From the NCBI GenBank assembly GCA_017871115.1, contig JAFCIZ010000011.1, positions 1,009,501-1,073,500 of the forward strand: a stretch of 64,000 nucleotides of DNA. The letters are read 5' to 3'. This document shows, in pieces, positions 16,625 to 41,995 of the stretch. The notes below the pieces were generated by a model, which saw only the letters and a list, made by a program, of their open reading frames with translations, made no database searches and was not told the DNA's origin. Positions within the stretch are counted from its first letter, which is position 1; every line of letters begins with the position of its first letter. Position numbers and translations under genes: made by a program. This DNA is from Cunninghamella blakesleeana. Lineage: Eukaryota > Mucoromycota > Mucoromycetes > Mucorales > Cunninghamellaceae.

Positions 16625-17069
16625 TTACAATTAATATTTGGTGTTTGGTGAGTGGAAATTTATGTGTTGGATTGATAAAATAAAATATAAAAAGAGGAAA
16701 GTGAAAAAAATGATTTCTTTTAACTTTAAAAAAACACCGCAGTCGTATAAGCTTGCTTTAAATTTATTTAATTTTAAACAACCCGCAGCTGTGTAGCTGT
16801 ACGTTAATTTTTTATAATCAAAAATGGGCCTGAGGTACTGAAATAGACTGAGTTTTAAGCTAAAATAAATATATTTTTTTTATAATATTAAAAGTATGAA
16901 AATACAAACATATTAAAAAAAGAGATTTATTGCTACAAAAAAAAAAGTAAACTTATATCTTTTTTACTATAATTGCATTTATATTAAATAATACTATTAT
17001 ACCAGAACAATATTAATAATAATAAAATAATATTACTAATAATATAGTATTATAACAATAATGATAATG
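16625..17069. promoter_or_regulatory. Upstream region of F-box copy 1
   Basis: The first 25-30 bases upstream of the ATG (AATATTTGGTGTTTGGTGA on the plus strand) and a segment at 16783-16817 (CCGCAGCTG, then TAGCTGT and TTAATTTTTT) recur upstream of F-box copy 2 (20641-20670 and 20787-20818). This is either residual duplication homology or a conserved promoter element. CTGAGTTTTAA occurs at 16848. Confidence 0.5.
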
Positions 17070-17400
17070 TTATAATTCGGGATAGCTTCCATGATCAAAT
17101 ACATGTCCTGTCATTTTAGGATCCATAATATCAATTCCTTGATCCTTGTATAAGATCATAACAGTCGATATATTCTATATAGGTAGTACTATTATCCAAC
17201 TATTAGACATCTACTAAAAATAATTTTTTACTTTTGGTGGATGGATTTGTACCTTGAATCATATTACGTTTATTAACACAAACATCTTTAATGATATCTA
17301 CTATACATAAAGTTGTAGATTTACCTAAATGCGTGCGATGAAATATATATGTTAATTTTTCAAAATACTTTTTCCATACTCTTTCATCATTGATTAGTAT
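17070..17400 (-). pseudogene. Decayed coding remnant between F-box copies
   Basis: Reading the minus strand, protein-like sequence appears in pieces: WKKYFEKLTYIFHRTHLG, then DIIKDVCVNKRNMIQGT, and, after a stretch with stops, ISTVMILYKDQGIDIMDP and TGHVFDHGSYPEL ending at a TAA (17072-17070). Possible GT-AG joins exist (after the CAAG at about 17260; acceptor TATATAG at about 17185), but I could not build an upstream start or a full gene. I do not recognise the protein. The composition is much less repetitive than the surrounding DNA, so either a gene relic or an unmodelled last pair of exons is plausible. Confidence 0.3.
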
Positions 17401-17461
17401 TATGCAATGTTTAAATGTTAGAATACTTAATATTACAAAATATTATGGGTGATGTTTGTTT

Positions 17462-17492
<31 letters not shown>

Positions 17493-18419
17493 GGAATTCA
17501 CCGTAAATATTACCACAATGTATTATTTCTTCTCTAATATAAACATTGTAATTACTAGAAGTTCAATAGATAGAAATAATAGGAAAGATAGTATTAATGG
17601 TGGTAGCTGAAACAAAAGAAACACTTAAACAGCAATTTAGATTTTATACATTTTCTTCTATCCTCTTCTTTTTTTTTTCTTTTTTCTTTTTTTTATTTTT
17701 TAATTTTTTTTTAATTTTTTTTTTTTTTACTTCATTTCTTATCCTTCTTTTTAAATATGTAATAATAATAAATGAAATGTTAAAGAAAAATAGCATTAGT
17801 TGTAATTATTAAAGTAATTTGATGCTTACTAAATACATTATATAGCTTAAATATTAGTATAAGATATACACTTTTGTATTAAAAATTTTTTTGAAATTAA
17901 AATTGATTAAAACTTGTTTAGGCCAAAATAACATTGAATAATACCTAATCAAAATTGAATTTTATCCATAATTGAGTAACTAGAAGAGGTATTGAGTCAG
18001 AGCCTGAAATTAAAAAAGCTAGTGTTTTTTGGTTCTTTATTAAGATTCGACAAGCTTTAAAAATTTCACTTCTTTTTTTACAACTATGATTATGAAGCTT
18101 ATTTTTTATGCTTTTTTGAGTTTGGTTTATTATTATTATCTTATAATTATTGTTATAACACTTGTATATATCAGACTACGGTTAAATAAATAAATAAAAA
18201 TTAATTTTAAAAAATGCAATATGTAAAAAATAATACATTTATTGAAAAAATTAAAACAATTGTAATGCGTAATAATCGATATAACTAGTGGTAAATAATA
18301 ATAGTTATATAGTAATAGTATAATTAAAGGTATATATAATTATTTTATATTTTATAAAATTAAGAGTTATTAATGGTCATAATTTAGAATAAATATTATT
18401 ACATTTTTTTTTAAGAAAA
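17401..18419. other. Intergenic, low complexity
   Basis: A 30-base T-run at about 17468-17491, pyrimidine tracts at 17655-17760, and no supported gene. An open frame on the plus strand around 17597-17812 translates mainly to Phe and Leu from the T tract and is not credible. Confidence 0.5.
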
Positions 18420-20642
18420 TTAACATTTGAAATCAATTTTATCAATATATTTACATTTCAACAATATAGTAAAATTTTCCTTGGATTCTTTTGTTATAAT
18501 TTCAGAAAAAGATTGACAACCATCAGAAGTAGTTAATGAACGACGTGAATATATATCAGAGCTACCTTTAGTAATATACTTTTCGTCAGAAGCAGTTTCT
18601 TGTATAATTAATTTATTTACAACGCCATAGCCATAACTTCTATTAGTAGCCCATGCATCGAGATTAAACTTATTAATATATAAGTATTCTAAATGATTTT
18701 GTGATAGATCAAAGCATATTCCATTAACAGGATACATTTTTGAAGATGATGATGGTAAGGTTAATGCATCAGGTTCTGGGTATAATAGGTCAACATCACA
18801 TAAGCTTAGTATTTTTATATGAGGAGTTTTTTTTAAAAAATCATTGAATCCAATTTTCATGGCAATTTCAGAACGCCGAAGGGTTAATTTTTTTAATTTA
18901 TAAGTTGAGTTATTATTATAATTATTGTAACCACTATCAAACAAATCCAGCTGTTGCTGTTTTCTTTGCACTATCCATTCATGCGATTCATTCGCATTGA
19001 TGCTATACTTATTCCACTTGCGTCGGTATATTTCATTACTCGTACTGTTACATGTACCTCTACCATAATAATCCTTATCATATAAATCATCTTTATCGTT
19101 TATAATTCTACAACAGTATATTTCCAATGTAATTAAACTAGGAAGGATGTCTAACCAATCGGTTATATATATAGGTTCGCCACGTCCATTTATAACTAAT
19201 TTTGTTATTGAAGATGATAATATGATAGAGTTTTCGTTTTGTAAAAGATAGTAGTACAGAATATCATAGCTAAATGTTGGACTTAATGATAAATATGTCA
19301 AATGGTTGAATAAATGATGTTGTTTCACAATCTTGCTTATCATATTAGTGTAATCATTCATGGTAATTTGATCAGAAATGTCTGTTGTCACCATAGACTG
19401 GTTGTTATAATTTTCAAGTGAAAGATGATTATATCTAAGGAAGGTTAATTGTGTTGGATGTTGTAATAGACATTGTAAAAATTCATTATTTGGCCAGAAT
19501 GTTTTATTTTCCATTCCACTTTCAAGATGTACCCTCATTTGATTCCGTGGACAAAATAAATATATATCTAATGTTTTTAAAAACTGAAATTTCATCATTG
19601 CATCACGTATTGCTGATTGATAAGATTCACTAAGTTCTATTGGAAGTGGCATGGTGATTAAGTCAAGTCTCAATGTATTTATTCGTGGGTATTTTTTTGA
19701 TAGATATGCAAAACATTGAGGATATATGATTTTACCCTCAATATCTAAACTTTTTAAATGATGAGGTTGCTGAAATATAATGGTGGTATCGTCGCTGTTA
19801 TATTTGAGCTTATGATCATAATCTTCAGATATAGTCATAGATATTTTTGAAAGTGATAAAGATTCAAGTTTTGGACATGAATGACTTATATCTTCAAAGG
19901 TATATTCATCAATATAGTGAAATTTGTTATGTTCTTCTGTGTCATAGCCTTGTGAATGATTGATTTCTATATTCTCTACCTTTCGATCTGGAAAAGATAT
20001 ATTTAAATAAGTCAAGTTTTTCAATGTTGGTAAAATAAGAATTGTTTTTATCGTTTCATTTTCTCCATCGTCGACATACGGAGGTATTTGAATTGTTGGA
20101 CCAAAATGTTTTAAGTGAATAGGTGGTAGAGGAAGAGAATGTTGTTTCTTATCGTCAATCATTTCTAATTCTATATTTTCATTTATGTCCAAACGTTCTA
20201 CTCTATCTTTATTATTAAATAGTGTTGTCATCCATGATTTATAGGAATTGATATACCATTCTTCATAATGAGTAAGCTTATTTAGTTCAGGTAAATAGTC
20301 ATCGTATGGTACATCACCAAACACATAGAAGCCGTCAATAGATTGAATATTTGGAAACGTTTTTGCAATTTCTAACAGTAGCTCTTTCTCCGTTCCACCA
20401 ATATGAAAACCGACATTCAAACGTTGAACATAATGGCCAATAGGTTTATTATTAACAGTTTTTTCTTTTGCTATATTAATAAATCTCATTAATTGTTTCT
20501 TAGAATTAACATCAATAAAGTAATAAAAGTAAGGCTGAATGAGTTGATACCAGGTCTTACAAACAGATGCAGTAGCTATCTTGTATTTTTGTGGTAAACG
20601 CAAAAATATATTTTCTAATATTTCATTAGGTAGGGAGTCCAT
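18420..20642 (-). CDS. F-box protein, copy 2 (740 residues)
   Basis: Intronless. Same layout as copy 1: F-box at residues 1-45 (MDSLPNEILENIFLRLPQ, VCKTWYQLIQPYFYYF), then irregular leucine-rich repeats (PKLESLSLSKISMT, LTYLSLSPTFSYD, IKILSLCDVDLLYP). The first 20 residues and the long YPQCFAYLSKKYPRI and KTFWPNNEFLQCLLQHPTQL blocks are the same as copy 1, whereas the segment near residues 215-240 and the C-terminal 100 residues differ markedly. Such patchy divergence is what one expects if the substrate-facing surface changes quickly or gene conversion has homogenised parts. Expected to act as an SCF adaptor; substrate unknown. Confidence 0.9.
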   Translation of the reverse strand: MDSLPNEILENIFLRLPQKYKIATASVCKTWYQLIQPYFYYFIDVNSKKQLMRFINIAKEKTVNNKPIGHYVQRLNVGFHIGGTEKELLLEIAKTFPNIQSIDGFYVFGDVPYDDYLPELNKLTHYEEWYINSYKSWMTTLFNNKDRVERLDINENIELEMIDDKKQHSLPLPPIHLKHFGPTIQIPPYVDDGENETIKTILILPTLKNLTYLNISFPDRKVENIEINHSQGYDTEEHNKFHYIDEYTFEDISHSCPKLESLSLSKISMTISEDYDHKLKYNSDDTTIIFQQPHHLKSLDIEGKIIYPQCFAYLSKKYPRINTLRLDLITMPLPIELSESYQSAIRDAMMKFQFLKTLDIYLFCPRNQMRVHLESGMENKTFWPNNEFLQCLLQHPTQLTFLRYNHLSLENYNNQSMVTTDISDQITMNDYTNMISKIVKQHHLFNHLTYLSLSPTFSYDILYYYLLQNENSIILSSSITKLVINGRGEPIYITDWLDILPSLITLEIYCCRIINDKDDLYDKDYYGRGTCNSTSNEIYRRKWNKYSINANESHEWIVQRKQQQLDLFDSGYNNYNNNSTYKLKKLTLRRSEIAMKIGFNDFLKKTPHIKILSLCDVDLLYPEPDALTLPSSSSKMYPVNGICFDLSQNHLEYLYINKFNLDAWATNRSYGYGVVNKLIIQETASDEKYITKGSSDIYSRRSLTTSDGCQSFSEIITKESKENFTILLKCKYIDKIDFKC

Positions 20643-21289
20643 TTACAATTAATATTTGGTGTTTGGTGAATGAAAAATTAACAAGTGCTAAAATAATAAA
20701 AAAAATGATTTTAAGATATAAAGCGATAAATATAGCAAAAAAGAAAGGGGAAAAAAAAAAAAACTTTTTAATTTTAAAAAAAGTTTACCGCAGCTGAATA
20801 GCTGTGCTTTAATTTTTTTAAATTAAATTATAGTATATATTTTTTAGCTATATCAATATCCTGTCTTTACAAATATGGATTCAGTAACCATGGATAAAGA
20901 GAGGCTTTAACATATGTATATTGAATTATAAATAAGAAAAGGTGTGTGATTGTATGATAGAAAAATAAAAAATTAAGATAATAAACTATACATTTTGTTA
21001 AAACTTACGAATATCACAAATCATTTTTTTTATATATAATATTTCTATTTTATTTACAAGTGGATGATTATAAACTTGTCAAACAATTTTACAAAAATTA
21101 GCTTAACCTAGCATCTATTATTGATTTGTTTTCAACAAATATGAATTTTTGAAGAATTAGCTATGTAAAAAAATTTTATGTAGAGTTTATTTTATTTTTA
21201 TAACCATATAATTATTGATATTAGTATTAGTTATATTGGAATACGAATAAATATATAAATAAATAAAAATTTAAAACCTTAAAAAAGGA

Positions 21290-21326
<37 letters not shown>

Positions 21327-21431
21327 TTTTTATATAATATTATGGAATATACTGCTATTAATTATAATATTCAATGATATTTAATTCAATTGTTTCTTTT
21401 TTGCTTTCTTTCTTTCCTTTTTTTTCCAAAC
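20643..21431. other. Intergenic between F-box copies 2 and 3
   Basis: Contains the CCGCAGCTG...TAGCTGTGCTTTAATTTTTT segment at 20787-20818 shared with copy 1's promoter, A-runs at 20750-20765 and a long TA run at 21292-21320. No gene seen. Confidence 0.5.
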
Positions 21432-23612
21432 TTATTTATTAAATACTAATTCATCAATGTATTTACATTTCAATGATAAAGTATATTCACCTTTAAAACT
21501 TCTTGCTACATCCCCACTTCTAGTAATGGTACGTTTATTATCAGGAATGGTTTCATATATTAACAACTTATTTACAATGTATCTATCATCAACCATATAT
21601 TTACCCCATGAAAAAAGAGATAGTTGTTTAATAACAAGTAATTCCAATTGGTATCGAGATAGATCAAAGGTTATTTCTTTCTTTGGAAGCAAAGCTGAAG
21701 ATGAAGTAATATCACCATTACTATTGTGCATTGGTCCTGGTTCTAAAAACGAATGTAGTACTTGATCTAACACGAGCCTTTTTAAATGGGGGCATTTGTT
21801 TAAAATTACGCTCAATCCATTTTTTATAGATAGTGTACATTGTTGAAGCGTCAGATATTTTAATTTATAAGTAGAATTGGCACCAGTGTCATTTTTATCA
21901 TTTTTATTGTAAAATAAATTTTGTTGTTGATGCTGCTTTTTTTGTTTTATCATTTCATGCGATTTATGTACATAGGTATTATACTTGTTTCTCAATAAAA
22001 AATCATGACTGTCTTTATTTAAATCCTCTCCATCGTTTATCATGCCGATGGCTTTTAGTTTTAATAATGTTAAATTAGGGAAAGTGTCTAACCAATCAGT
22101 TATGCAAACAAGGTCTTCTCTTTTATCTTCATTTGATCCATCTATAATCAACTCCTTTATTGAAAGGGATAGGACAATGTTATTTTCGTTTTGTTGTTGC
22201 GAAATATAATGATAAAGAATGTCTCGACTAAGTTTTGTTGTTAGTTTTAAATATATCAAATGGTTGAGTAAGGCATTAGGTTGATGGATGATTTTATTTA
22301 TGATATCTTGATAATAATCCTTTATCATATCAGTTGAATCAGAATTATTATTTAAAAGCTGTTGTTGTTGATTCCATTTTTCAAGTATCTCATTATAGTA
22401 GGTGAAATGTGTCAATTGTGTTGGGAATTGTAATAACCATTCCAAGAATTCATTATTTGGCCAAAACGATTTATCATCCATTCCTATTTGCAAAAGTCCA
22501 TCCATTTCATGTTGCGAATATTTTAATTCTAAATTTAATCTCTTTAAAAATTGAAGATGCGTCATCATATTATGCATAGCGAATTGAAATGATTTGGTAA
22601 TTTGTATTGGAATGGGCAAAACGTTCAAACTTAATTTGAGTGATTCTAGTTGAGGATACTTTTTTGAAAAATAAGTAAAGCAGCTTGCATCCATAATCCT
22701 ACCACCTATTTCCAATTCTTTTAATTGGTAAGATTTTTGAAACATAACTATATTGGTATCATTTTGTTTCATAATATCATTGAAAGATGAAGCAATAGCA
22801 TCATCATTTTCTTCATTTATATCTTCAGGTTTTGTCATATAAATCGATTGAAGAGATAAAGATATAAGACTTGGGCATGATTGATGTATAGATTCAATTG
22901 TATATTTATCAACATAAGGATAATAGTCACTACTTGGGAAAGTCATCCTTGGAAAATAAATACATAAAGTCGTCAACATGTTCAATTTCGGTAAAATCAG
23001 GATTGCTCGCCGAGGCGATCCAAGGGAATAACATGAAGTATATGAAGGTAGCATTGAATTTCGTAATTGCCCAAAAGGCTTGAAATGGATAGGAGGGAGA
23101 AGAGAAGGATCGTTGGTATAATAAGTTTGTATGGTTCCAGGTATAAAAAGTGATTCTACTTTTTCTTTATTGTTAAGTAACGTTTTCATCCATGTCCTTT
23201 TAGTGATAACGAACCAAAGGTCCATATGAGTAAGCTGTTGATATTGAGAATCATCATTTTCAGATAATTTATTTACACAACCTAGACCGTTTTTAGGTCC
23301 ATTAATAGAATGAATATTTGGTAATGCCTTTGTTATCGCTAACAGTACATTTTTATACAGTAAATAATCGTAATGGAAAATCAAATGTTGAACATAATGA
23401 CCAACAGGTTTATTATCGATGATATGCTGTTTTGCTAAATTAATAAATTTTATTAATTGTTGCTGAGAATAAAAATTAATAGTATAATAAAAAGAAGGAT
23501 TTAAAATAAGCTGTCGCCAAGTTTTACATACAGTGGAACAAACTGTTATTCTGTATCTTTTTGATAAGTGCGAAAATATAATTTCTAATATTTCTCTAGG
23601 TAAAAAATTCAT
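21432..23612 (-). CDS. F-box protein, copy 3 (726 residues), diverged
   Basis: Intronless. The F-box is recognisable (MNFLPREILEIIFSHLSKRY, VCKTWRQLILNPSFYY) but the sequence is clearly older than the copy 1/2 split. Landmarks shared with the others include GHYVQHL, FWPNNEFLEWLLQFPTQLTH, CFTYFSKKYPQLESLKLS and the C-terminal SLKCKYID. Asn/Gln-rich insertions (QQQQLLNNNSDS; QKKQHQQQNLF) fall in the same loops where copies 1 and 2 also vary. It lacks the CCGCAGCTG promoter segment of the other two. Role inferred as an SCF substrate adaptor; nothing identifies a substrate. Confidence 0.88.
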   Translation of the reverse strand: MNFLPREILEIIFSHLSKRYRITVCSTVCKTWRQLILNPSFYYTINFYSQQQLIKFINLAKQHIIDNKPVGHYVQHLIFHYDYLLYKNVLLAITKALPNIHSINGPKNGLGCVNKLSENDDSQYQQLTHMDLWFVITKRTWMKTLLNNKEKVESLFIPGTIQTYYTNDPSLLPPIHFKPFGQLRNSMLPSYTSCYSLGSPRRAILILPKLNMLTTLCIYFPRMTFPSSDYYPYVDKYTIESIHQSCPSLISLSLQSIYMTKPEDINEENDDAIASSFNDIMKQNDTNIVMFQKSYQLKELEIGGRIMDASCFTYFSKKYPQLESLKLSLNVLPIPIQITKSFQFAMHNMMTHLQFLKRLNLELKYSQHEMDGLLQIGMDDKSFWPNNEFLEWLLQFPTQLTHFTYYNEILEKWNQQQQLLNNNSDSTDMIKDYYQDIINKIIHQPNALLNHLIYLKLTTKLSRDILYHYISQQQNENNIVLSLSIKELIIDGSNEDKREDLVCITDWLDTFPNLTLLKLKAIGMINDGEDLNKDSHDFLLRNKYNTYVHKSHEMIKQKKQHQQQNLFYNKNDKNDTGANSTYKLKYLTLQQCTLSIKNGLSVILNKCPHLKRLVLDQVLHSFLEPGPMHNSNGDITSSSALLPKKEITFDLSRYQLELLVIKQLSLFSWGKYMVDDRYIVNKLLIYETIPDNKRTITRSGDVARSFKGEYTLSLKCKYIDELVFNK

Positions 23613-24171: not shown

Positions 24172-26623
24172 TTACTCTTTTTCTTGTCCATTTTTTTCTT
24201 GTTGTTTTTTCATTTTTTCATAGCGCCAAGTATTTCCTTTCCATTGAATCAAAATCAAATTAACGCCAAAAAGAGTTAATAAAGCACCCAAGAAAGTATA
24301 CATTGGACCGGGTCCCATCGCTCTTTCCAAATCTGAAGAAACTAAGGAACCAATCCCTGCTAAAAGATATCTTGTTAAATTATTACATGCAGTTACAGAT
24401 GCACCACGATGTCGAAAACAATCTACCATATAAGTACTTAAGATCACATTAGTAACCATTAATCCCATTCCGTAAAAGAATTGACAAACTAATCCATAGG
24501 CAAAGTGTGTTTTCACTTGAATACACCACCCAAATCCTGTAATGGCTACCAATTGTAAAATAATAGAGCCATAAAAAAGAACTCCTCCTAATCGCATTTC
24601 TGGATATGGCTGTTGCTTTTTATTGATTGACGAGGATGATTTTTCTTTTTCCTCTTGCTGTGATTGATTGTTATTATTGTTATTACTAGACATTCCACTT
24701 TCTTTTTCTTCGTCTTCTTCGATTGTATTCTTTTCAGTTAATTTTTTAGCATTACGTATATATCTTTTATCCGATAATCTCCCGCCGGCTATTCCACCAA
24801 TAGCACAACCGATTGCATTGGGTAAATAACATACACCTACAATACTTGATTCAAATCCATAGATTGATGCATAAGATCTTGAAAAATTAGCATTCACCAA
24901 ATAAAATGAAAAGAATCTATTTTTTTTTTTTTAAAAAAAAAAAAAAAAATTAAGTGAATGAATAAAATAAAATAAAATAATAATTGATTTTTTAGTTAAT
25001 CCTCTTATAAATGCATATTTATTATTTTTACTTACAGTATCCCAAGAAAAGCAACACAAAGAGCAATATTTTTATATAAAAATAAATCCATAGCTGAAAA
25101 AGGATTGATGATGTTGCTTTTTTTTCGTTTGCTAACAGAATCCGTATCAGGTAAAAAAAAGAATATATTTAAAAGAATTAAAAAGTTGATGATACCTAAA
25201 AAGTAAAAGATGCTTCTAAATCCAAATGCATTATTTAACAATCCACCTAATAAATAAAATTGTGACCATAAAATAAAAAGTTAAAATAAGCCATATTGTC
25301 ATTGTTTCTTTTTTCCTTCTTATATGTATATATCTTACCAATGATAGGTCCAAAGCAAGGTCCAAATAAAGGTCCAATGATATACCAAGCAAAAGCACGC
25401 CCTCTTTCATGAATTTCAAATACATCAGATAAAGTCCCTGCACCCATAGACATGGTCGAACTGGATCCAATGGCACTAAAAGCTCGAAACACAATCAACA
25501 TGGCAATATTGATAGATAATCCACAACAAATACTTCCAATAGTGGTAATAATAAATGAAGCAAGATATATTTTTCTTCTACCAAATCGTTCGGCTAAAGC
25601 TGCCCATAATAATGGCTACGTACAGATAAATAGAATAAACGAAAAAAAAAGAAGGGATAATGTATTTTTAATTTAATATCAATTATTCTTAGTTATTTTT
25701 CATGCCTTTTTTATTTAAAATACCTACAAAAAAAGCAGTGAAAAAAGTAAAAATAGCAACTATATATTTATATGAATTAATAATAATAGTAATAATAAAA
25801 TGTTTTATGTTAATATGACCGTCCTTATCTTCCTTGTTCTTTCTTTCCCTTTCCCTTTTTTATTGTAACATACGTATGTCTACATCATATCTTTTTTATT
25901 TATTTATTTATTTATATTACTCGAAGCGTTCATTGTTGTATCAGTCGTATGAAAGGCTACTTGCATAGTTACAAGGGCAGGGAGCTATTAATAATATAAT
26001 AGATAATATTAAGTTATTTATAATAATGATATATTTTAAAATAAAAGAGAAAGCAGAAAAAAAAAAACTTACATAGATTGTTGATGCCAATGGAGATCTT
26101 AAAAAAAAAAAATTTAAGGTACAAAGTCAGCGGACTTAAAAAAATGATAGAAATTTTTTATTATAATATTCACTTACGAACAGCCAGCTGAAGCAACAAT
26201 AAATAAAATAAAATTTTTTTTTGTATTAGAAAGTAATTTTGGATCAACTTTGGACGAGTTTTTTTTCCAAAATTTCCAAGGTGTTAAAGAAGGATTAGAA
26301 TGATGATGATGATGAATAGATGATGGTGATATGGATTTAGAATGATATTGTTGATCATTCATTTGTGAAGATGTTTGATCTATTTGCGATGACGGTGATG
26401 TAGGTGGAGGCATGGTCTTATCTGATTGTAAAGTCACGGATTTTTTTAAAGATAATGATAATGTATTTTCATTATTATTATCATTATCCTCCTCTTCTGT
26501 TGTTTTATCATGATAATGAATGGTTTCTATCGTATGAGAGATCATTGGTCCATTTTGATCCAATGCTACTACTAATAAACTATTATTGGATTGTGTAGTA
26601 GTCTGTCTGGTAATTGGATCCAT
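24172..26623 (-). CDS. MFS transporter, DHA1-like, paralog A
   Basis: Exons: 26623-26178, 26097-26073 (25 bases), 25984-25921, 25759-25728, 25615-25339, 25246-25036, 24916-24172; 599 residues. A hydrophilic, His/Ser-rich cytosolic N-tail of about 125 residues precedes about 12 membrane segments. Motif A of the superfamily is PLLWAALAERFGRRK, and the DHA1-type motif C region is SMGAGTLSDVFE followed by GPLFGPCFGPIIGG; a charged central loop (KRKKSNIINPFSAMDLF) separates the halves, and a second polar insert lies at RNAKKLTEKNTIEEDEEKES. Such proton antiporters export drugs, polyamines or organic acids from the plasma membrane; substrate not inferable. Paralog B at 39641 shares every intron position and phase. 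Confidence 0.88.
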
Positions 26624-27935: not shown

Positions 27936-30900
27936 CTAATGACTAACAAATAAATTCATCGTACTACTTGAACCACGGCTTTCAAAAGCCATTTGAACAT
28001 CATCATCCGAATTTATAGTAATAAAATCTTCGTCTTCATCTTGGTATTTCAATCGTAACGTATCGTTTGGTTGTAAATTAGCAACTAGCTTGATTTTCTT
28101 TTCCACTTTATCCATTAATTCATGAAATGAAATAGCTACAGGACATACAATTACATAAATTCCATCATTATAACTTAATTTAATTTTTAATGTATCCATT
28201 CCTCCAGCTCCATTGGTTGAAACAGATGTCAAAGTAGGTGATCGTTGTTCAGGAGATGATGGATGTTGATATTGTTGTTGTTGAGAATGATGAGAATGAT
28301 GGTGTTGTTGTTGTTGATAATAAGTTCTTGAATTGATTGGCATTTGTGGTAAATCGTCCCACTGATGAGGATTGTTTTTATGAATATTAGGACTACTTTG
28401 AGATCGGACACGAGTTTGATGGATAGATGAAGCTGAAGGAGATGTGGCCATAAGATTGGATGAATAACTTGCTGCAGATTGTGAAAAGCTTCTACCTTTA
28501 GGCATTTCTTCCGTCATGAATTTAGTTGCAATATCAGTTAAATGAGCTTCTTCACCTCCATAAGAAGGTTGTCGTTGCCATATGGGTGATCCACTGTTTT
28601 TGCTATTATTATTATAATGATGCGAAGATGAAGATGAGGAAGCTAAGCGGGATGTAGTAGGTGAAGCGGGTTTTGAAGGTGGAGGTGAAGCAGGATAAAC
28701 CCCATGATCAATAGTAGGATCTACTGCTGTACTACTAGAAGATAAAGATGAAGAGGTAGAAGCTATGGAACCATTGGCGGTGATATTGGAGCTATTACGA
28801 GGTAAAGGTGATAAATTCATTCCAGGGGTAGTAGCAAAAATACGAGGACTTGTTTTATTATTACTATTTCCATTACTAATATTACTGTTATTATTACTAT
28901 TATCATTTAATCCCATTTTTGACCTTGCATGATGTAATGTAGCCGATATAGAATTGCTTCTTGATCGTACTTGATAAAAGTTTTCATCATCATCATCGTC
29001 ACCATCATCATCTTCATCTTCTTCTTCATCTTCATCATCAAAGTAAGAGATATGGCCATTTTGTTGTAATGGCATAGATAATAAGTGCGTGTTAGGTACG
29101 GTGGATTTATTAGAGGCTGTCATTTTATTTAAAGTGGATTCCCATAATTTTAAATGTTCTTCATTTCTAAATCGCAATAAAAATTGATCAATTTCCCGAT
29201 TTTTACAATCTACTGATAAAATCCAAGATCCTATTATTTAATAATAATAATAAAAAATAAAAAAAAAAAAAGATAATATAAATTAAAATTGATGATAATG
29301 GTTATTACTATTTAATTTGATCTTTTTATTTATTTATTTAGTTAGCTTACCATTTTGAGATTTATTATTGACACCAATAATTCGATTAATTAAAATCAAG
29401 TATTTAGGTTGTAAAGTGCCAGCACGTTTTTTTCTTATGGATAAAGTATTTGCCTTAGTTAATCGATTTTTAGAGGCATCTTTACTTTCTTTACAAAATA
29501 ATAGGGACCGTTCAAAAAAGAATCCATGTACTTCCCGAGCATTATCATTAATTGTCATATTCATTTTTTCATGAAGTAATAAGCTACCATATCCTTCAAT
29601 ATTAATTCCCTAATAAAAATAAAAAAATAAAAATAAAAAAAAAAAAGGGTAAAATAATTAATGATTATCCTTTTTCATTGGCTAAAAAATAATAATATAA
29701 TAAAACAATATTATATAGATATTTTACCCTCCAATCATCCACTCTCTTTTTTAAATCTTCTACAGCTTGAATATTTTCATGTTGACGTTGAGTTTCATTC
29801 ACTTTCTCAGTTACTCGTTTAATAGCTTCCAAACCTTCTTCCATTTCAGTATAATAAGGCCATTCCTTGTTTGTACTTTTAATCAATTCACTTTGTAGTA
29901 AAGGATATTTACAGATACGTTGGACGGGTTTGATCAACATGGAAGGTAATTGATAAGTAGGATTTAAAATATGTTCTAATTTTTGCAAATTAGGTGTTTC
30001 CTGTACTACCAAATCTTGAGCAGAATAAAAATTGGAACAATAAGGTTCATACACGGAAAAGGTTTCTTCGTTTTGAACAAAGAGTGCGCCAAACCGTTGT
30101 TCTTCAGGAGATTGGACTGCGATATCTTCTAATTGAATTAAAAACCGACGCTGGAAATCAACTAAAGCATTGAGATTACCAAATAAGTAATGAATGGTAT
30201 CTGGTGGTAAAACCTTTTGTGCATGTAGTTCCCTCATATAATTCTAAAAAATAAAAATAAAAAAATATGTATATATAAATATAGATGCTCAATTAATAAA
30301 TAGTTATATATTTTAAAAAAAAAGAAATATCTATTTACGTACTTGCAATGCTTCTAAATCATGTACATATTTTCGTTCAGTTTCTAATAATTCTAAAACA
30401 ACCTTATCTCGGGTATCTTTTGGTCCATCCGCATCAGCATTTTCATCAATAGATTTCACTGTAATAATACCCCGTTCATCTAATATATTTAGAATTTTTT
30501 GAATAGTATTTACAACCTAAAAAAAAAAAAGAGAGAGAGAAATATATCACCGAAGTAATAATAAAAAATGAGATCAGGTGATTTAAAAAAAAAAAAAAAA
30601 AAAAAGATATAAACAATTTTTTTTTGTCATTGTTAAACAATAAATATTAAAAAAAAGTTGGTGTAATCCAAAAAAAAATTGATTTATAAATTGATTTATA
30701 ATAAATTGATATTATATTATCATATTATTAATATTAATATTACCTTCACAAAACCATTGGTATCATCTTGATAAAGATCAGTAATGGTAAACATTTCATC
30801 TTCAGGGAAAAGTAATTCTTTTCTACATGCAACAATAAAATGATATACACTGGCTTTACAAGTATTTAATTGGTTTAAAGTAGGGTTTTGATCGACTTTT

Positions 30901-31283
30901 AAAGGGTTTTCAGGATTCAATGCATTATAAAGAGTACATAAAGGGCTACCTCGACGACAAATATTCCATAATTTAGATAATGGATCCCCACCACTTTTTA
31001 AACTAGTAGGTGTAGTAGCTTCTGTAGTTGGTGAAGTTGCTTCAACAAGATCTAAAAAATCACTCATACCTGGTACACTAGGTAATTGATCCAATACAGC
31101 ACGACAAGTATGGTAAAGTGATCCTCCATTTCCTGTTGGTGTTAAAGGATTACAAAGCGTTTTGGTAGTGGAAAAGATGGATGGTGTGGTTGGTAAAGCT
31201 TGATGTTGTTCCATCATTGAGTTCATGGATGGAACACTAGGTAAAGTTGCCAATGAAGGCCGATGTTTTGCAGCGGCTGCCAT
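27936..31283 (-). CDS. CDC24: CDC24-like Rho/Cdc42 guanine-nucleotide exchange factor
   Basis: Exons 31283-30744, 30516-30343, 30243-29728, 29609-29351, 29230-27936; 927 residues. Activates Cdc42 at sites of polarised growth by promoting GDP release. Order: CDC24/calponin-like N-terminal domain (about 55-180, LYHTCRAVLDQLPSVPG), DH domain (about 212-405, VVLELLETERKYVHDLEAL, then QLPSMLIKPVQRICKYPLL, the signature CR3 helix), PH domain (about 415-535, GYGSLLLHEKM, FFFERSLLFCKE), a 300-residue Ser/Asn/Pro-rich linker with an acidic run (DDEDEEEDEDDDGDDDDDEN), and a C-terminal PB1 domain (about 845-927) with an OPCA acidic motif (YQDEDEDFITINSDDD). PB1 in yeast Cdc24 binds Bem1. All hallmarks are present, so function is likely intact. 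It shares a 2.4 kb upstream region with the divergent NDPK-fusion gene. Confidence 0.93.
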
Positions 31284-33679: not shown

Positions 33680-34671
33680 ATGTCCATACCTGATAGTCAT
33701 CTTATGAAGGTATATATATATATATATATAATCTTATAACTGTCAAAGAAAATAATTAGTCTATTTCATCATCTACGTGTATTTATATATATATATATAT
33801 ATATTAACAATAAAACTTATTCTTTCTACTCTTTTTTTTTTTTAATATAGGAAGGTGAAACTACCATCACTTCTTCCATTAGTTCTTTTGATGAAAAGAG
33901 CCAACAAGGTAAAAAAAAATATTAAATAGTGAGGGGAGAAAGAGATAAAAATAAGGTACAAAAATATATACATATATACATGTTTGATATTCAATATATA
34001 TATATGGTGGATAATTATAAAAAAAGTAAAATAAGCAAGACAATGATAAAGATAGATAGGTCTTTATATATGTATCTCTATATTCATAGACACGTCATTC
34101 TTGTTTATTTATTTATTTATTTTATAGTGGAGCGTACTCTGGCATTGATTAAACCAGATGCAATGCAAGCAAATCATCAAGATGCTATTTTAGAAAAAAT
34201 CAATACATCTGGTTATACCATTGTAGATAAAAAACAAGTTCATTTATCATTACATCAAGCTGAATTGTTTTATCATGAACATGAAAATAAACCTTTTTAT
34301 AAAGATTTAACTCAATGGATGAGTAGGTAAAAGAGACTTTTGGAAAATAATATTCATAAAATACAGGGGAAGATAAAGTAAAATTATAAAATAAAAAAGG
34401 GATAAAAGGGGAAAAAAGTTGGTTATATATATTTACTTTTCATCTATTTGCATTCTATTCACCCCTTCTTTTACTTTTTTTCTTATTTTTATAAATAGTG
34501 GCCCTATCTATGCTTTAATCTTGGAAAAAGAAAATGCTATTCAAGATTGGAGGAATTTAATGGGTCCTACTGATTCAAATAAAGCCCGTGAAATAAACCC
34601 TGATAGGTAATTATATTAATAGTAGTAGTAATTGAATATATATATATTCACAAATATTTATGTCATACCGG

Positions 34672-34710
<39 letters not shown>

Positions 34711-37700
34711 TATAACTTTATATTTCCTTTTCTTTTATTTTTTTTTTTTCATTTTTATTTATTTTAGTATTCGAGCACTTTTTGGTACAGATGGATCCCA
34801 AAATGCTACACATGGTAGTGATAGTGCTCTTAGCTTTCAACGTGAAGTAAACATTATTTTTGGAATGAATCAAGAACAAAATAGTGATGATAAAAACGTG
34901 ACTTTAGAAAAGAATGCATTAACTGAAACAGATCATCAAAATGTCAACGATAATAATACTACTACTACTACAACAACTAACACTACTATTATGAAACAAC
35001 AAATCACTTCCATTTCTCAAGTAGACGATTATAAAATCATTCATAGTCATGATCACAATAATGAAAATGAAAAGGTTGAAGAAGAAAAAATAAATGCTAA
35101 TAACGATAATGAAAATGCTACTATTACTTCTACTACTTCTTGTGTTACTTCATCGTCATCCTCCGTGCCATTACACAACGTACCAGCATCATCATCAGAA
35201 CAACTTGATTCCTTGTCCCACTTGAGTTCACCTGATCATGAACTTAACCTTAATGAAACGACTGTGGAACAAACTATCACTTCCATTACTAGTACTGTGT
35301 CAGAAAAAGCAGACCTTGAAGTGGATTTGATACAAACAAAAGATACTTTAGTAGAAGAAGATGAAAAAGTAAACGATTTGATTCATGAAGAAAAAACAGT
35401 AGAAGCTGAACAAAAAAAAGATGACGATGATCGTGAAGATATAGAACTTGAACAACAAAAGGAAAAAGAAATAGTATCCGAAAAAGATCAACAATTTATC
35501 AATCAAAATGAATCTGTTAGCGAACTTCAAAAAGTAGATACATCTAGTGAAGAGACACAAATCAAAATAGATATTAAAGCGCAATATGAAGAAGTAGAAG
35601 AAATAAAAGCAGAAGTATCTGAGCAACAAGTGAAGGAAACCGACCAAATCAACGAAACATCCATCCATACTACTACCACTACTGCTGCTTCTGTTATTGA
35701 TGTTGTTGAAAATGGATCTACTGATATCGCTGAAACTACACCCATCAAAGAAACAAAAGAACATCACGATACAGCCGTTACCAACGATGATCAAAAACAA
35801 CAACAAACTGGAGATAAAGTAGAAGAACCAAAGGATGTGGCTCAAAACCAAGGTAACCAAGAAGAAAAAGAATCTACTACTTTAGATGCACAAGACCATG
35901 ATGGTCAACAACAGGAAAATATAAATACAGATACAGTCGATGAACAAACTCTTATTGGTAAGGTTGGTGAACAAAAGGAACAAACCACTATTTCTGAAGC
36001 ACAAGATGAAGTAGAAGAAGAAGAAGATGTAAAAGAAGAAGTAGTAGAAGTAGAAGAAGAAGAAGATGTAAAAGAAGAAGTAGTAGAAGAAAAAGAAGTA
36101 GAAGAAGAAAAAGAAAAAGAAGTAGAAGAAGAAGAAAAAGAGGAAGAGGAAGAGGAAAAAGATCATGCAAAGGATGAAAAAGTCATTGTTGAAACAAATG
36201 ACCATGATAACATTACTCTTACTGAATCAAACAAAGATGATACTATTACTGAATCAATTGAAGTTAATACTATTACTGAATCAACTGAAGTTAATACTAT
36301 TACTGAATCAACTGATAAAAAGGATCACGATAAGAAGGATGATAGTGATGCTATTCCTAACGATGTTCAAGAAACAGAATCCCTCAAGATTAGTGAATCA
36401 CAATCTAAAGATACTGATGGCCATCTATTAAAAGAAACCACCAGCACTATTACTGAATCACAAGAGGAAATTATCACTACTACCGTCAGAGAAAATGATA
36501 GCATCGTTGATCATGCTGATGTAACTACTACTATTGAATCTGAAAAGATTGATAATACAAAAGAATTATTGGTGAGCGATAATAACGAAACTCATGATGA
36601 ACCTATTCATTCTGAAACTGATCAAATAAATGAAGAACATGAACATAAACATGATGAACCAGTAGCTGAAAAAATAAATGATGAAACTGAAGATTTAATT
36701 ACTATTCCATTATCTGAAACATTGGAAAATAAAAAGGAAGAGGAAAGTGGAAAGATTGAAGACGATCATGATGAGCCTGCTCACCAAGATAATGAATCAA
36801 CAGATAACCAAACTGAAGAAGCTAGTGATGCTGAAGATAAAGAAACTAAAATAGAATTAAATGATGTTCACGATGTAGAAAAAGAAGATGATCATAAAAC
36901 TGAAACTCAAAAAGTGAAGGAAACATCTACTCAAAAAGAGGACTCATCAGAAAAAGTAAAGAAAAGTATTCCAAGAGCAAAGGGTACAACTACTGCAAAA
37001 CCTTCTACTACAAGATCACCTCCACAAAAGGCAGCAACTGCTACAACAGCTACAAAAAAGGTAGCAGCTACTTCTAAAATTGCTACACGTACATCACCAA
37101 ACAAAGCAACTTCTGTTGATGCAGAAAAAATAGTTAAAAAATCAACTCCTACAACTACTACAAAAACAGCTACTACCACTACAAATACTACAAAACGTAA
37201 TTTTGTTCCACGTGTAGCTAGTTTAGCAAAGAAGTCACCCACTAAGAAATCTGAAGATGAAGAAAAAGAATCAAATGATAAAACTACAGGTACAGCAACC
37301 AAAACTAAAGTAGAATCCAAAACTCCTACGACTAAACGTAGTTCTGTGTTTTCAAGATTGACAACTCCTACTACTGCTAGTGCTAATAAAAAAGCAAGTG
37401 CTGATTCTGCTACTACTGCTACTACACGTGTGAAATCTTCTACTGCTACAACAACAGGAACAACACGACGTACCACTACTACTACTACTACCACTACTAC
37501 CACTTCTATCAATGGATCTTCTACAACTGTTAGTTCTACAGATAGTCATTCAAAACCTACAAAGTTAGTTAAACGAACAAGTCCTACTCGTACTTCACCT
37601 TCCAGTACAGATGATAATAAAACAGTAAAACGATCTTCAGTGACTTCACGTGTAACTCCTACTAGTACCAAATCACCCCCTTCTAATGGTAATAAAACAG

Positions 37701-38570
37701 ATACAACAGCAACTACTACTACAAAACGTGTTTTAAAAAAACATTCTCCTCCTACAAGTACTCATTTAACTTCCACTACTACAAAGGTACTTGAAGCTAA
37801 AATATAAACAAATAAAATAATGATAATGTTGATAATTAAAAAACAGAAAAAAATTTTAATACCAATATTTTCTTTTTATTAATACTATTATTATTTAATA
37901 GGCTAATGTAAAAACAGGCGTTAAAACAGCAGCAGATAAAAAAGAAGCTCTTAAATCAAAAACTACTAAACCAACAGTAACAAAAAAAGAACCTGTTAAA
38001 CAAGTTAAGAGCACTAAAAAATCTACAGAAAATGATACTACTACTGTTAATACCTCTGAAGATCATCATGAACAACAACAAAATGAAGAGGAAAAGGAAC
38101 CTGAAGTTGAACAACCTCAAGTAGAAAAAGAAGTAGAAGAAGAAAAGGAGGATAAAAAAGAGATTGAAACAGAAGATATTGAACAACAAGTTTCATCCCA
38201 AGAAAAAGAAGAAAAAGAAGTGACTGTAACAATAGATAAAGAAGAAAGTCAACAAGAACAACAAGGAGAAGAAAAAGTAGATGGGAATGAAATGACAGCC
38301 TCCGTTATCGTTCATAATGTTGAACAAATGGATGCAGAAGTCATGTCAGTTACAGAAACAATATTAGAACATCATACCAATGAATCCTCTTCATCCTCTT
38401 CATTAAAGCCTAACACTACTACTACCAATCCAAATCGCCCAAAATCACCTGAAGTAGCTTCTTTACTTAATAAATTTGAAAATTTACAATCGACCACTTC
38501 TACTGGATCTCGCCCTAATATTAAATCTGGAGGTGGTGTTAAAGATTTAATTAACAAATTTGCTCATTAA
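33680..38570 (+). CDS. Nucleoside-diphosphate-kinase domain fused to a giant acidic/basic low-complexity tail
   Basis: Exons 33680-33709, 33851-33908, 34128-34326, 34499-34606, 34768-37786, 37902-38570; 1360 residues. Residues 30-165 are an NDPK fold: VERTLALIKPDA with the P-loop-region lysine, SGPIYALILEKENAI, and the active-site NATHGSDS with the phospho-accepting histidine at about 147. The opening ERTLALIKPDA is closer to the NME5-like divergent group than to housekeeping NDPKs. From 165 on, the protein is disordered: acidic Glu/Asp/Thr-rich to about 860 (Glu-Val-Glu run at 543-603, TITEST repeats), then a basic Lys/Arg/Thr/Ser/Pro-rich block (about 861-1138, SPTRTSPSSTDD, TKRSSVFSRLTTPTT), a second Glu/Lys-rich block, and two copies of a VxxLxNKF motif at the C-terminus. 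The start ATG encodes a 10-residue first exon. Full function unknown. Confidence 0.85.
36211..36312 (+). repeat. In-frame TITES/TITEST coding repeat
   Basis: Within the acidic tail of the NDPK fusion, a 30-base unit encoding EVNTITEST is repeated almost exactly twice, preceded by two shorter degenerate units (ITLTESN, DTITESI). Typical of replication-slippage expansion in a disordered segment. Confidence 0.8.
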
Positions 38571-39640: not shown

Positions 39641-41995
39641 ATGGAACCAGTAACTCGACAACTCACTACTCAATCCAACAAAAGCTTCTTTGTAGTAACA
39701 TTAGATCAAAATGGGCCAATGGTTTCTCAAACTATGGAAACCATCCATTGTCATGATAATCATGATGATGACGATGATAATGGATATGATGATATTAAAC
39801 TTCAATATAATAATGATCATAATAAAAAACCTTCACAATCATTAAATAAAACTATGACCATTCAATCTGATACAACCATTCAACCTTATGATGAGAAATC
39901 AATTATATCCAATAATACAACCAATACCACTATATTAAATACTAATAATAATATTCCTCCTTGGCAATTTTGGAAAAAGGATGCCGGGAAAGCTAATCCA
40001 AAATCTTTTTCTACGAGTAAAAAATATTTTATTTTATTATTAGTAGCAATTGCTGGTTCCTCGTAAGTAATTAAAAATCAAAAAATCAAAAAAATTTAAA
40101 AATTTAAAAATCCGAAACAGTGCCCTTAATTTTTTTATATTTTTATTTCCTAAAAGATCACCATTGGCTTCAACTATTTATGTAAGTTTCATTTTTCCAT
40201 TTTAATATTCTTTTTTTTTTTTTTAACAATATTCTTTTATATTTTAACATAATGGCTAGTAGTATCCTGCACTTATAGATATGCAAAAAGCCTTTAATTC
40301 TACTGATACCCTAATGAACGCCTCAAGTAATTATTAAAAAAATTAAAATATATTATCGCTATATAAAAGAACACTATTAACCAATATATCTCTATTATTA
40401 TTTCTAGTTTCCATATTTACTTTCTTTACTGCTTTCTTTGTTAGTATTTATTTAATAGAAAATTTTTATAGTAATTGAAATTTTTTTTATTAAAATAGAA
40501 TATAATACATATTTTCTTATTCTTTTTTATTTCTATTTATTTCTACTACTTTAGCCTTTACTCTGGGCTGCCTTGGGTGAACGCTACGGTAGAAGAGTGG
40601 TTTATTTAGTCTCATTCACTATTACAGTTATTGGTAGTTTACTTTGTGGATTATCAGTAAATATGGTGATGTTTATTGTATTTAGAGCCATCAGTGCTGT
40701 TGGATCCTCTTCCGTATTATCCATGGGTGCTGGGACATTATCGGATGTATTTGAAGCTCACGAAAGAGGAAATGCCTTTGCTTGGTATACCTGTGGTCCA
40801 TTATTAGGTCCAGCTCTTGGTCCTATTATTGGTAAATAAATAAATATAAATTAATATATGTATGTAAAGAATTTATATATTAACAATTCTCTATGATTAT
40901 GATCATGCTCTGTTCATTTTCTGTATTATTTGTTTTTAGGCGGATTTTTAAATAATGGTTTAGGCTATAAAAGTATCTTCTATTTTTTAGCTATATTCAA
41001 CTTTGTTATACTATTTGGAATCTTCTTTTTTTTACCTGAAACTTCACAACTCACCTTCCCTGAACAGAACAGCGGAAATCAAACATCACCCAATGATAAT
41101 AAAAAACGGAAACCTATGAACCCTCTATCGGCATTAAATTTATTTTTAAACAAAAACATTGCTCTTTCTGTTTGTTTTGTCGGTATATTGTAAGTTATTT
41201 TTTACCATAGATAATAATAAATGTAAAAAATAAATAAACAAATATTGAGCAATGGAAAACTTATCTATTCATCTTTACTCTCTATTTTATAGATTTTTTT
41301 CGCTTTACATTGTTAGTACTACATTTTCAAGAACTTATGCAGCATTGTATGGATTTGAATCAAGTATTGTAGGTTTATGCTATTTACCTAATGCCATTGG
41401 GTGTATGGTTGGTGGTATGACCGGTGGAAGATTATCAGATAAAAGATATGTTCAATGTTTAAACAAGCTAAATGAATCCAATGACGAAGAAATATCAGTT
41501 GAAAATCAAACCAATAATAATATTAATCAACATCAGCATCAATTAAAACGACCTTCTCCAGAAGCACGATTAGGTGGGATTATTTTTTATGGTTCTATAC
41601 TTATTCAATTATTAGCCATTACCGCATTTGGATGGTGTATACAAGAAAGAGTTCATTTTGCTTTTGGTTTAGTTTGTCAATTCTTTTATGGGTTTTCTTT
41701 AATGCTGCCTAATGTAATTCTTAATACATATATGGTGGATTGCTTTCGTAAACGTGGAGCTTCCGTAACAGCATGTAATAATTTTGTTAGATATTTTTTG
41801 GCAGGGATTGGATCATTAGTATCTTCAGATTTGGAAAAGGCTATGGGACCTGGACCAATGTATACGTTTATTGGCGTTTTATTAATGGTTTTTAGCGTGA
41901 ATTTGGTCTTAGTTCAATTGAAAGGAAATACTTGGCGGCAACAAAAAATGAGAAAACAGCAAGAAAAAGGTTTAAAAGTGGATACCCTCCCTTAA
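39641..41995 (+). CDS. MFS transporter, DHA1-like, paralog B
   Basis: Exons 39641-40062, 40157-40181 (25 bases), 40263-40326, 40408-40439, 40555-40831, 40940-41189, 41293-41995; 590 residues. Same architecture as paralog A: polar N-tail of about 115 residues (Asp/Asn/His-rich), then about 12 membrane segments, PLLWAALGERYGRRV (motif A), SMGAGTLSDVFEAHERG and GPLLGPALGPIIGG (motif C), VGGMTGGRLSDKRY (second-half motif A) and NLVLVQLKGNTWRQ at the end. Exons 2, 3, 4 and 5 are exactly the same length as in paralog A, which proves common descent after intron gain. The donor after exon 4 is GTTAGT. Likely a plasma-membrane H+ antiporter; substrate unknown. Confidence 0.88.

What the first reader, a model, noticed from the sequence alone, without database searches (positions are those of the whole stretch)
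33680..38570. Nucleoside-diphosphate-kinase domain on a 1200-residue disordered tail with MAP-like charge blocks
Seen: intact NDPK signatures (NATHGSDS) in the first 165 residues, then acidic, basic K/R/T/S/P-rich and again acidic blocks, all in one frame across six exons. Known: NME5-type NDPKs in animals and protists carry short extra domains (Dpy-30, thioredoxin), not such tails; microtubule-associated proteins commonly alternate acidic and basic S/T/P-rich blocks. Inference: a cytoskeletal or scaffold-anchored NTP-supplying or regulatory protein that may be undescribed.
Basis: partly seen in the sequence, partly recalled or inferred. Interest (0 to 1): 0.8.

Follow-up and report, generated by a model that had tools for sequence, protein, structure and literature searches.

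The report
Flagellar-type kinase kept by flagellum-less fungi
A mould that has no swimming tail carries an enzyme unit related to one from the swimming tails of other organisms, joined to a very long floppy tail; it may now work on the mould's ordinary internal tracks (microtubules), which is untested.

Summary
Six exons (33680-38570, +) encode 1360 residues: one nucleoside-diphosphate kinase (NDPK) domain (31-165), then about 1195 disordered residues in acidic, basic, acidic and basic blocks. The exon with the catalytic His runs straight into the tail, and four other Mucorales proteins have the same order of parts, so the fusion is not a modelling error. The family needs correcting: not NME5. 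Among 80 NDPK domains it falls with the distal units of zoosporic-fungal thioredoxin-NDPK (NME8/TXNDC3-like) proteins (94/93), next to animal NME8 units 2-3 (81/75). Two papers I saw in passages call NME8 a choanoflagellate/metazoan innovation. The basic tail looks old: 36 of 40 fungal NME8-type tails of 60+ residues have a basic block, 0 of 7 animal ones. Two tail motifs (5 of 8 Mucorales A proteins) persist in a paralogue group with decayed active sites. The last C-terminal motif, a predicted helix, recurs in Calcarisporiella. Best reading: an active NDPK of ciliary ancestry, kept after flagellum loss and anchored by its tail, probably to microtubules. Descent is fairly supported; binding, activity and location are inferred.

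The parts
33680..33709 (+). exon 1, MSIPDSHLMK (least certain exon)
   Evidence: GT donor, open frame; homologues start with a similar unstructured N-terminus
33851..33908 (+). exon 2, EGETTITSSISSFDEKSQQ
   Evidence: AG/GT sites; weak similarity to the ETPVSS stretch of Mucor relatives
34128..34326 (+). exon 3, N-terminal half of the NDPK domain (Lys38, Tyr78, Lys84)
   Evidence: Pfam NDK 31-165; residue table
34499..34606 (+). exon 4, middle of the NDPK domain (Arg114, Thr120)
34768..37786 (+). exon 5: end of NDPK (Arg134, Asn144, His147, Ser149, Glu158; to about 34867), long acidic block, most of the basic block
34868..36886 (+). first acidic disordered block, residues 166-838, pI 4.1
36887..38042 (+). 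basic K/R/S/T-rich block, residues 839-1185, pI 10.5 (interrupted by intron 5, 37787-37901)
37208..37225 (+). motif M1, PRVASL, residues 946-951
   Evidence: conserved in 5 of 8 A rows and the B rows
37340..37393 (+). motif M2, SSVFSRLTTPTTASANKK, residues 990-1007
   Evidence: conserved in 5 of 8 A rows and the B rows; the M1-M2 stretch was found once in the genome
37902..38570 (+). exon 6: end of basic block, second acidic block, C-terminal motifs, stop
38043..38387 (+). second acidic block, residues 1186-1300, pI 4.1
38445..38492 (+). motif M3, SPEVASLLNKFENLQS, residues 1320-1335, predicted short helix
   Evidence: conserved in P0077-P0080; helix 1321-1335
38529..38564 (+). motif M4, GGGVKDLINKFA at the C-terminus, residues 1348-1359, predicted short helix
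   Evidence: conserved in P0077-P0080, also in Calcarisporiella; helix 1351-1359

Best explanation
The protein descends from a thioredoxin-NDPK (NME8/TXNDC3-like) protein of the flagellate fungal ancestor. In the line leading to Mucorales the thioredoxin domain and all but one distal NDPK unit were lost, while the basic S/T/P-rich tail was kept and extended with acidic blocks and two C-terminal helices. The tail anchors the protein electrostatically and through short motifs to cytoplasmic or spindle microtubules or their end complexes; acidic blocks may space the enzyme or limit its binding. The NDPK, with a complete active site, then makes NTP, chiefly GTP for tubulin or another local GTPase. 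Shown or well supported: gene, domain, active-site residues, conserved tail motifs, placement among NME8-type units. Inferred: loss of domains as the direction of change, microtubule anchoring, enzyme activity, GTP supply.
For: Domain tree 94/93 with fungal distal NME8-type units, sister to animal NME8 units 2-3 at 81/75; grouping with NME7 unit 1 disfavoured, AU p=0.022. Possible intermediates: Basidiobolus P0021 (record marked partial) with five NDPK units and a basic tail; Calcarisporiella P0209 with one NDPK, a basic tail and M4. Basic block in 36 of 40 fungal NME8-type tails of 60 residues or more against 0 of 7 animal tails. The catalytic set examined is complete in the window and in 5 of the 7 other Mucorales A rows; the other two differ only at the Lys84 position, one by Arg, one by Gln. 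A review passage states that NM23-H8 and NM23-H9 bind microtubules directly and treats GTP supply to tubulin as open (PMC5473427); another that NME9 binds microtubules (PMC13256974). M1 and M2 outlast catalytic residues in group B.
Against: No localisation, binding or activity data. Pfam and PDB sequence searches show no known microtubule-binding repeat in the tail. No SxIP or SxLP in the window tail, and the LxxPT core of M2 is not the full LxxPTPh motif; LxxPT alone arises in 906 of 5000 shuffles. Animal NME8 and NME9 are reported without detectable NDPK activity, and the passage cites two studies finding no direct microtubule interaction of NM23-H1/H2. Four of the 40 fungal tails (P0011, P0029, P0030, P0040) lack a basic block. 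M2-M4 were not convincingly found in zoosporic tails. Order within the fungal clade is unresolved (134 columns); A+B as one clade has only 71/75. Catalytic loss in group B shows that activity is dispensable in a paralogue.
Confidence: 0.42

Rival explanations
1. The tail is the functional part, a scaffold; the NDPK is mainly an oligomerisation module that clusters tails, and catalysis matters little.
For: Group B paralogues keep M1 and M2 while the NDPK decays: of 11 B rows whose NDPK N-terminus is present, 10 lack the KPD motif with the active-site Lys, and the two Rhizopus rows P0107 and P0108 have Asp for the catalytic His. NDPKs generally form oligomers (recalled).
Against: The catalytic His loop is kept in the other B rows that cover it. 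Catalytic residues are kept in group A across genera (7 of 8 rows complete if Lys or Arg is accepted at the Lys84 position), which argues for retained chemistry in this orthologue. Most B rows were found by their M1-M2 region, so the presence of the motifs in them is partly by selection.
Confidence: 0.25
2. The tail targets something other than microtubules: the polarity or actin machinery at the hyphal tip, or septa.
For: A Cdc24-like RhoGEF gene lies divergently about 2.4 kb upstream; M3 and M4 look like short protein-binding helices (inference).
Against: Gene neighbourhood is weak evidence in fungi; synteny in other Mucorales was not checked; ancestry points to microtubules.
Confidence: 0.13
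3. A nucleolar or nucleic-acid-associated protein of the kind with alternating acidic and basic S/T-rich blocks (Nopp140-like, recalled).
For: Alternating acidic and basic blocks, pI 4.1 and 10.5.
Against: No such family in Pfam at E up to 10; basic tails are common in the flagellar-type relatives.
Confidence: 0.1
4. Gene-model artefact: two neighbouring genes wrongly joined.
For: No RNA evidence; exons 1-2 short.
Against: NDPK end and tail share one exon; four other full-length proteins (P0077-P0080) have the same order of parts.
Confidence: 0.02

Closest known systems
NME8 / TXNDC3 (animal) and the TXNDC3/6-named proteins of zoosporic fungi
   Same: NDPK domain in the same clade as fungal distal units and near animal units 2-3; most of the fungal ones with long tails also have a basic S/T/P-rich stretch there (36 of 40)
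   Different: no thioredoxin domain, one NDPK rather than three or more, tail of 1195 residues against 72-275 in those 40 rows, acidic blocks added, organism without a flagellum (Mucorales, recalled)
NME9 / TXNDC6
   Same: human NME9 has one NDPK and is reported to bind microtubules (passage)
   Different: NME9 has thioredoxin; the TXNDC6 chain in the PDB is 330 residues, with no long tail; reported inactive
NME5 / RSP23-type
   Same: group II NDPK
   Different: no Dpy-30; the NDPK-Dpy30 row lies elsewhere in the tree
NME7
   Same: best PDB sequence matches include NME7 chains
   Different: no DM10, one NDPK; grouping disfavoured, AU p=0.022
Mucorales long-tail NDPKs (A: P0077-P0080; B: P0085 etc.)
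   Same: same gene family; these A relatives share NDPK, charge order and M1-M4
   Different: B relatives are shorter; the three B rows aligned lack M3/M4; active sites degraded

Membership tests
NME8/TXNDC3 | N-terminal thioredoxin domain | tested here: not met
   Pfam scan of the whole protein: NDK only
NME8/TXNDC3 | two or three or more NDPK units | tested here: not met
   one unit
NME8/TXNDC3 | NDPK sequence groups with NME8-type units | tested here: met
   94/93 with fungal distal units; 81/75 with animal NME8 units 2-3; moderate, not starred support
NME8/TXNDC3 | axonemal or microtubule association | not testable with these tools
   needs localisation or co-sedimentation
NME5 | Dpy-30 motif beside the NDPK | tested here: not met
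   no Dpy-30 in the Pfam scan
NME5 | NDPK groups with NME5/RSP23 | tested here: inconclusive
   the NDPK-Dpy30 row P0218 lies outside the 94/93 clade, but no animal NME5 row was in the tree
NME7 | DM10 plus two NDPK units | tested here: not met
   AU p=0.022 for grouping with NME7 unit 1 (group chosen because NME7 led the PDB hits, after a first tree had been seen)
active NDPK | catalytic residues (His118 set, NME1 numbering recalled) | tested here: met
   K38 Y78 K84 R114 T120 R134 N144 H147 S149 E158; Lys in place of Arg58
active NDPK | enzyme activity | not testable with these tools
   needs assay
microtubule-associated protein | known microtubule-binding repeat or EB-binding motif | tested here: inconclusive
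   none in Pfam; no SxIP; partial LxxPT only

The most novel reading that the evidence does not exclude
Probability: 0.25. Interest if true: 0.85.

Novelty: new variant of a known kind. Interest (0 to 1): 0.62.

Why it matters
Two papers seen in passages call NME8 a choanoflagellate/metazoan (or metazoan) innovation (PMC2978717, PMC13256974), yet zoosporic fungi hold thioredoxin plus multi-NDPK proteins whose distal units fall beside animal NME8, and Mucorales keep a tail-bearing single unit. If it stands, this would move the origin of NME8 back to the opisthokont ancestor or earlier, give a trackable example of a flagellar protein outliving its organelle, and offer a natural test of whether an NDPK carried on microtubules feeds tubulin with GTP, a question posed as open in PMC5473427 (passages).

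Tried and rejected
NME5 as family: no Dpy-30, and the one NDPK-Dpy30 row lies elsewhere. NME7: among the best PDB hits, but the AU test disfavours it. The first tree, plain LG, gave the same grouping with only 76 (ultrafast bootstrap) and placed group B less stably; the C20 tree is used. Searching the own genome for other proteins with M1-M2 or M3-M4: only the gene itself. PDB sequence search with M3-M4: nothing; with M1-M2: two chance-level coat-protein hits. M2, M3 and M4 in other tails: 18 tails, 54 tests, of which Calcarisporiella M2 gave p 0.022 and M4 p 0.002 (and Blastocladiella M4 p 0.034); 40 further rows tested for M4 gave a best p of 0.045 (that set of 40 includes Basidiobolus P0021 and, by oversight, the unnamed adenylate-kinase-type row P0038). 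EB-binding motifs: no SxIP in the window; LxxPT is no more than a lead. Flagellar families in the own genome (tektin, radial spoke, SAS-6, IFT46): no match, but three of the four searches rang in no control genome and the fourth only below cut-off in one bacterium, so nothing is concluded. The structure model of exon 6 has mean pLDDT 47.9; only the two helices rise to 66-76 in ten-residue blocks, and no fold search was made with it. Absence from Dikarya, Mortierella or Glomeromycotina is not claimed: three protein searches only, of limited sensitivity, and one search listed 120 of 211 hits.

Full report
What is there. The window lies in contig 11 of a 31.9 Mb genome in 12 contigs, AT-rich (20-33% GC) and intron-bearing. 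The tree puts its NDPK next to Absidia, Gongronella and Hesseltinella (95/75), so the organism is most likely a mucoralean fungus; the species was not established. The gene has six exons and encodes 1360 residues. Pfam finds one domain, NDK at 31-165, E 1.8e-44, and nothing else listed at E up to 10. The rest scores as disordered and is strongly charge-blocked: 166-838 acidic (pI 4.1), 839-1185 basic (pI 10.5; 28% Thr, 16% Lys), 1186-1300 acidic (pI 4.1), 1301-1360 basic with two conserved motifs. The contrast between blocks exceeds all 5000 shuffles.

Is the fusion real. Exon 6 is reached by a 115-base intron with an in-frame stop inside it; its C-terminal motifs are found at the end of the same protein in P0077, P0078, P0079 and P0080 (Mucor velutinosus, M. 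bainieri, Apophysomyces, Absidia; 1259-1449 residues). Of the eight Mucorales A rows used (window included), five show the full order acidic, basic, acidic, basic end, with M1 and M2; three (Helicostylum P0081, Gongronella P0202 marked partial, Hesseltinella P0207) have neither motif and stop or differ before that part; they may be incomplete models.

Family. With residues 1-170 as query among proteins of 748-2380 residues, 91 of 274 candidates passed E 1e-3: zoosporic fungi with several NDPK units, Basidiobolus, Mucorales, some animal TXNDC3/6 and adenylate-kinase-NDPK proteins. Of the 40 rows P0001-P0041 without P0038, 23 carry a precomputed thioredoxin domain (PF00085). A tree of 80 NDPK domains under LG+C20 gives one clade (94/93) of Mucorales A, Mucorales B and the third and later NDPK units of zoosporic fungi and Basidiobolus, with the Calcarisporiella unit and the four Piromyces units used; animal NME8 units 2 and 3 are its sister at 81/75. 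Fungal unit 1 is a separate group (94/88). Forcing Mucorales with NME7 unit 1 costs 17.8 log units, AU p=0.022. A plain LG tree gave the same grouping with weaker support, 76. Only 134 columns were available, order within the clade is unresolved, and no animal NME5 row was included.

History of the tail. Of 55 fungal NME8-type rows picked (Basidiobolus and four unnamed metagenome rows included), 15 had tails under 60 residues; of the other 40, 36 have a 50-residue block of net charge +6 or more, and four (P0011, P0029, P0030, P0040) do not. Of 24 animal TXNDC3/6 rows, 17 had short tails and 0 of 7 had such a block, all 7 having an acidic one. Calcarisporiella P0209 has one NDPK and a basic tail ending in a match to M4 (1 of 20,000 shuffles as good, five residues from the end) and a weak M2 match (p 0.022, one of 54 tests). 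In 40 other rows tested for M4, 38 of them zoosporic-type, the best p was 0.045. So the basic tail seems old, the motifs younger.

Enzyme. The ten catalytic positions examined are kept in the window protein, with Lys for Arg58 (NME1 numbering recalled). Five of the 7 other A rows have the same set; two differ at the Lys84 position (Arg, Gln). In group B, of 11 rows whose NDPK N-terminus is present, 10 lack the KPD motif; the Rhizopus rows P0107 and P0108 have Asp for the catalytic His, while the other rows that cover it keep His. M1 and M2 are in all 24 B rows, but most of these were collected with a query over M1-M2, four have no NDPK stretch at all in their predicted protein and nine others only a stump of 40 residues or so; seven (P0085-P0091) had been found independently by the NDPK search. 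The window's genome shows five NDPK loci, and the M1-M2 and M3-M4 stretches were each found once, so no B copy was seen.

How it likely works. A modelled exon 6 is disordered save two short helices at M3 and M4 (block pLDDT 66-76), which I read as docking segments. Review passages report that human NM23-H8 and NM23-H9 bind microtubules directly, while NM23-H1/H2 were found not to in two studies, and ask whether NDPKs feed tubulin with GTP (PMC5473427); and that NME8 and NME9 seem to lack detectable NDPK activity (PMC13256974). I therefore favour a microtubule-anchored, active NDPK, and rate a pure scaffold as the main rival. Binding, activity and place in the cell are untested.

Novelty. PMC2978717 (passages) states NME8 is likely a choanoflagellate/metazoan innovation, not identified in the fungi studied; PMC13256974 (passages) repeats metazoan innovation. 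The listings (4 of 4; 12 of 106; 12 of 146; 12 of 82; 8 of 12) showed, by title and start of abstract, no paper on this Mucorales protein or on fungal NME8-type proteins; only open-licence PMC papers are searched and most lists were capped, so this is no proof of absence from print. Passages of PMC7865070 and PMC8371127 cover flagellum loss in fungi; the latter analysed 61 flagellum-specific proteins, and NDK or nucleoside diphosphate does not occur in its main text. PMC10005782 and PMC7233555 were looked at only for passages on the LxxPTPh motif.

Noticed in passing
L014 (G000 contig C1, 1545400-1547400), frame 371-1042: An NDPK in one open frame with a hydrophobic N-terminus and HAS in place of HGS at the active site, on a very long branch beside an Ulva unit; a second unusual NDPK in this genome.
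   Followed up: partly
L012 1923-2662 (G000 contig C5): A group I type NDPK whose active-site loop reads VHASD instead of HGSD.
   Followed up: no
window 27936-31283 (-): Cdc24-like gene (CDC24 calponin, RhoGEF, PB1) divergent from the NDPK gene, about 2.4 kb away.
   Followed up: partly
window 24172-24930 (-) and 41249-41995 (+): Two similar membrane-transporter-like exons (MFS matches below the curated cut-off) in opposite orientation flank the Cdc24-NDPK pair, as if duplicated and inverted.
   Followed up: no
window 14399-23612 (-): Three large single-frame genes in tandem, the first with an F-box and the first two closely alike by eye (only the first was scanned).
   Followed up: no
P0085-P0092, P0099, P0102, P0107, P0108: Mucorales B paralogues: NDPK that has lost the KPD motif or, in Rhizopus, the catalytic His, but conserved M1 and M2 tail motifs.
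   Followed up: partly
P0003, P0006-P0010, P0016: Several chytrid TXNDC3/6-type proteins carry a precomputed PF04909 match (amidohydrolase, name recalled) as well as NDPK; fusion, merged gene models or chance.
   Followed up: no
P0077: The Mucor velutinosus relative is labelled 'mtDNA inheritance, partitioning of the mitochondrial organelle' by its source; origin of the label unknown.
   Followed up: no
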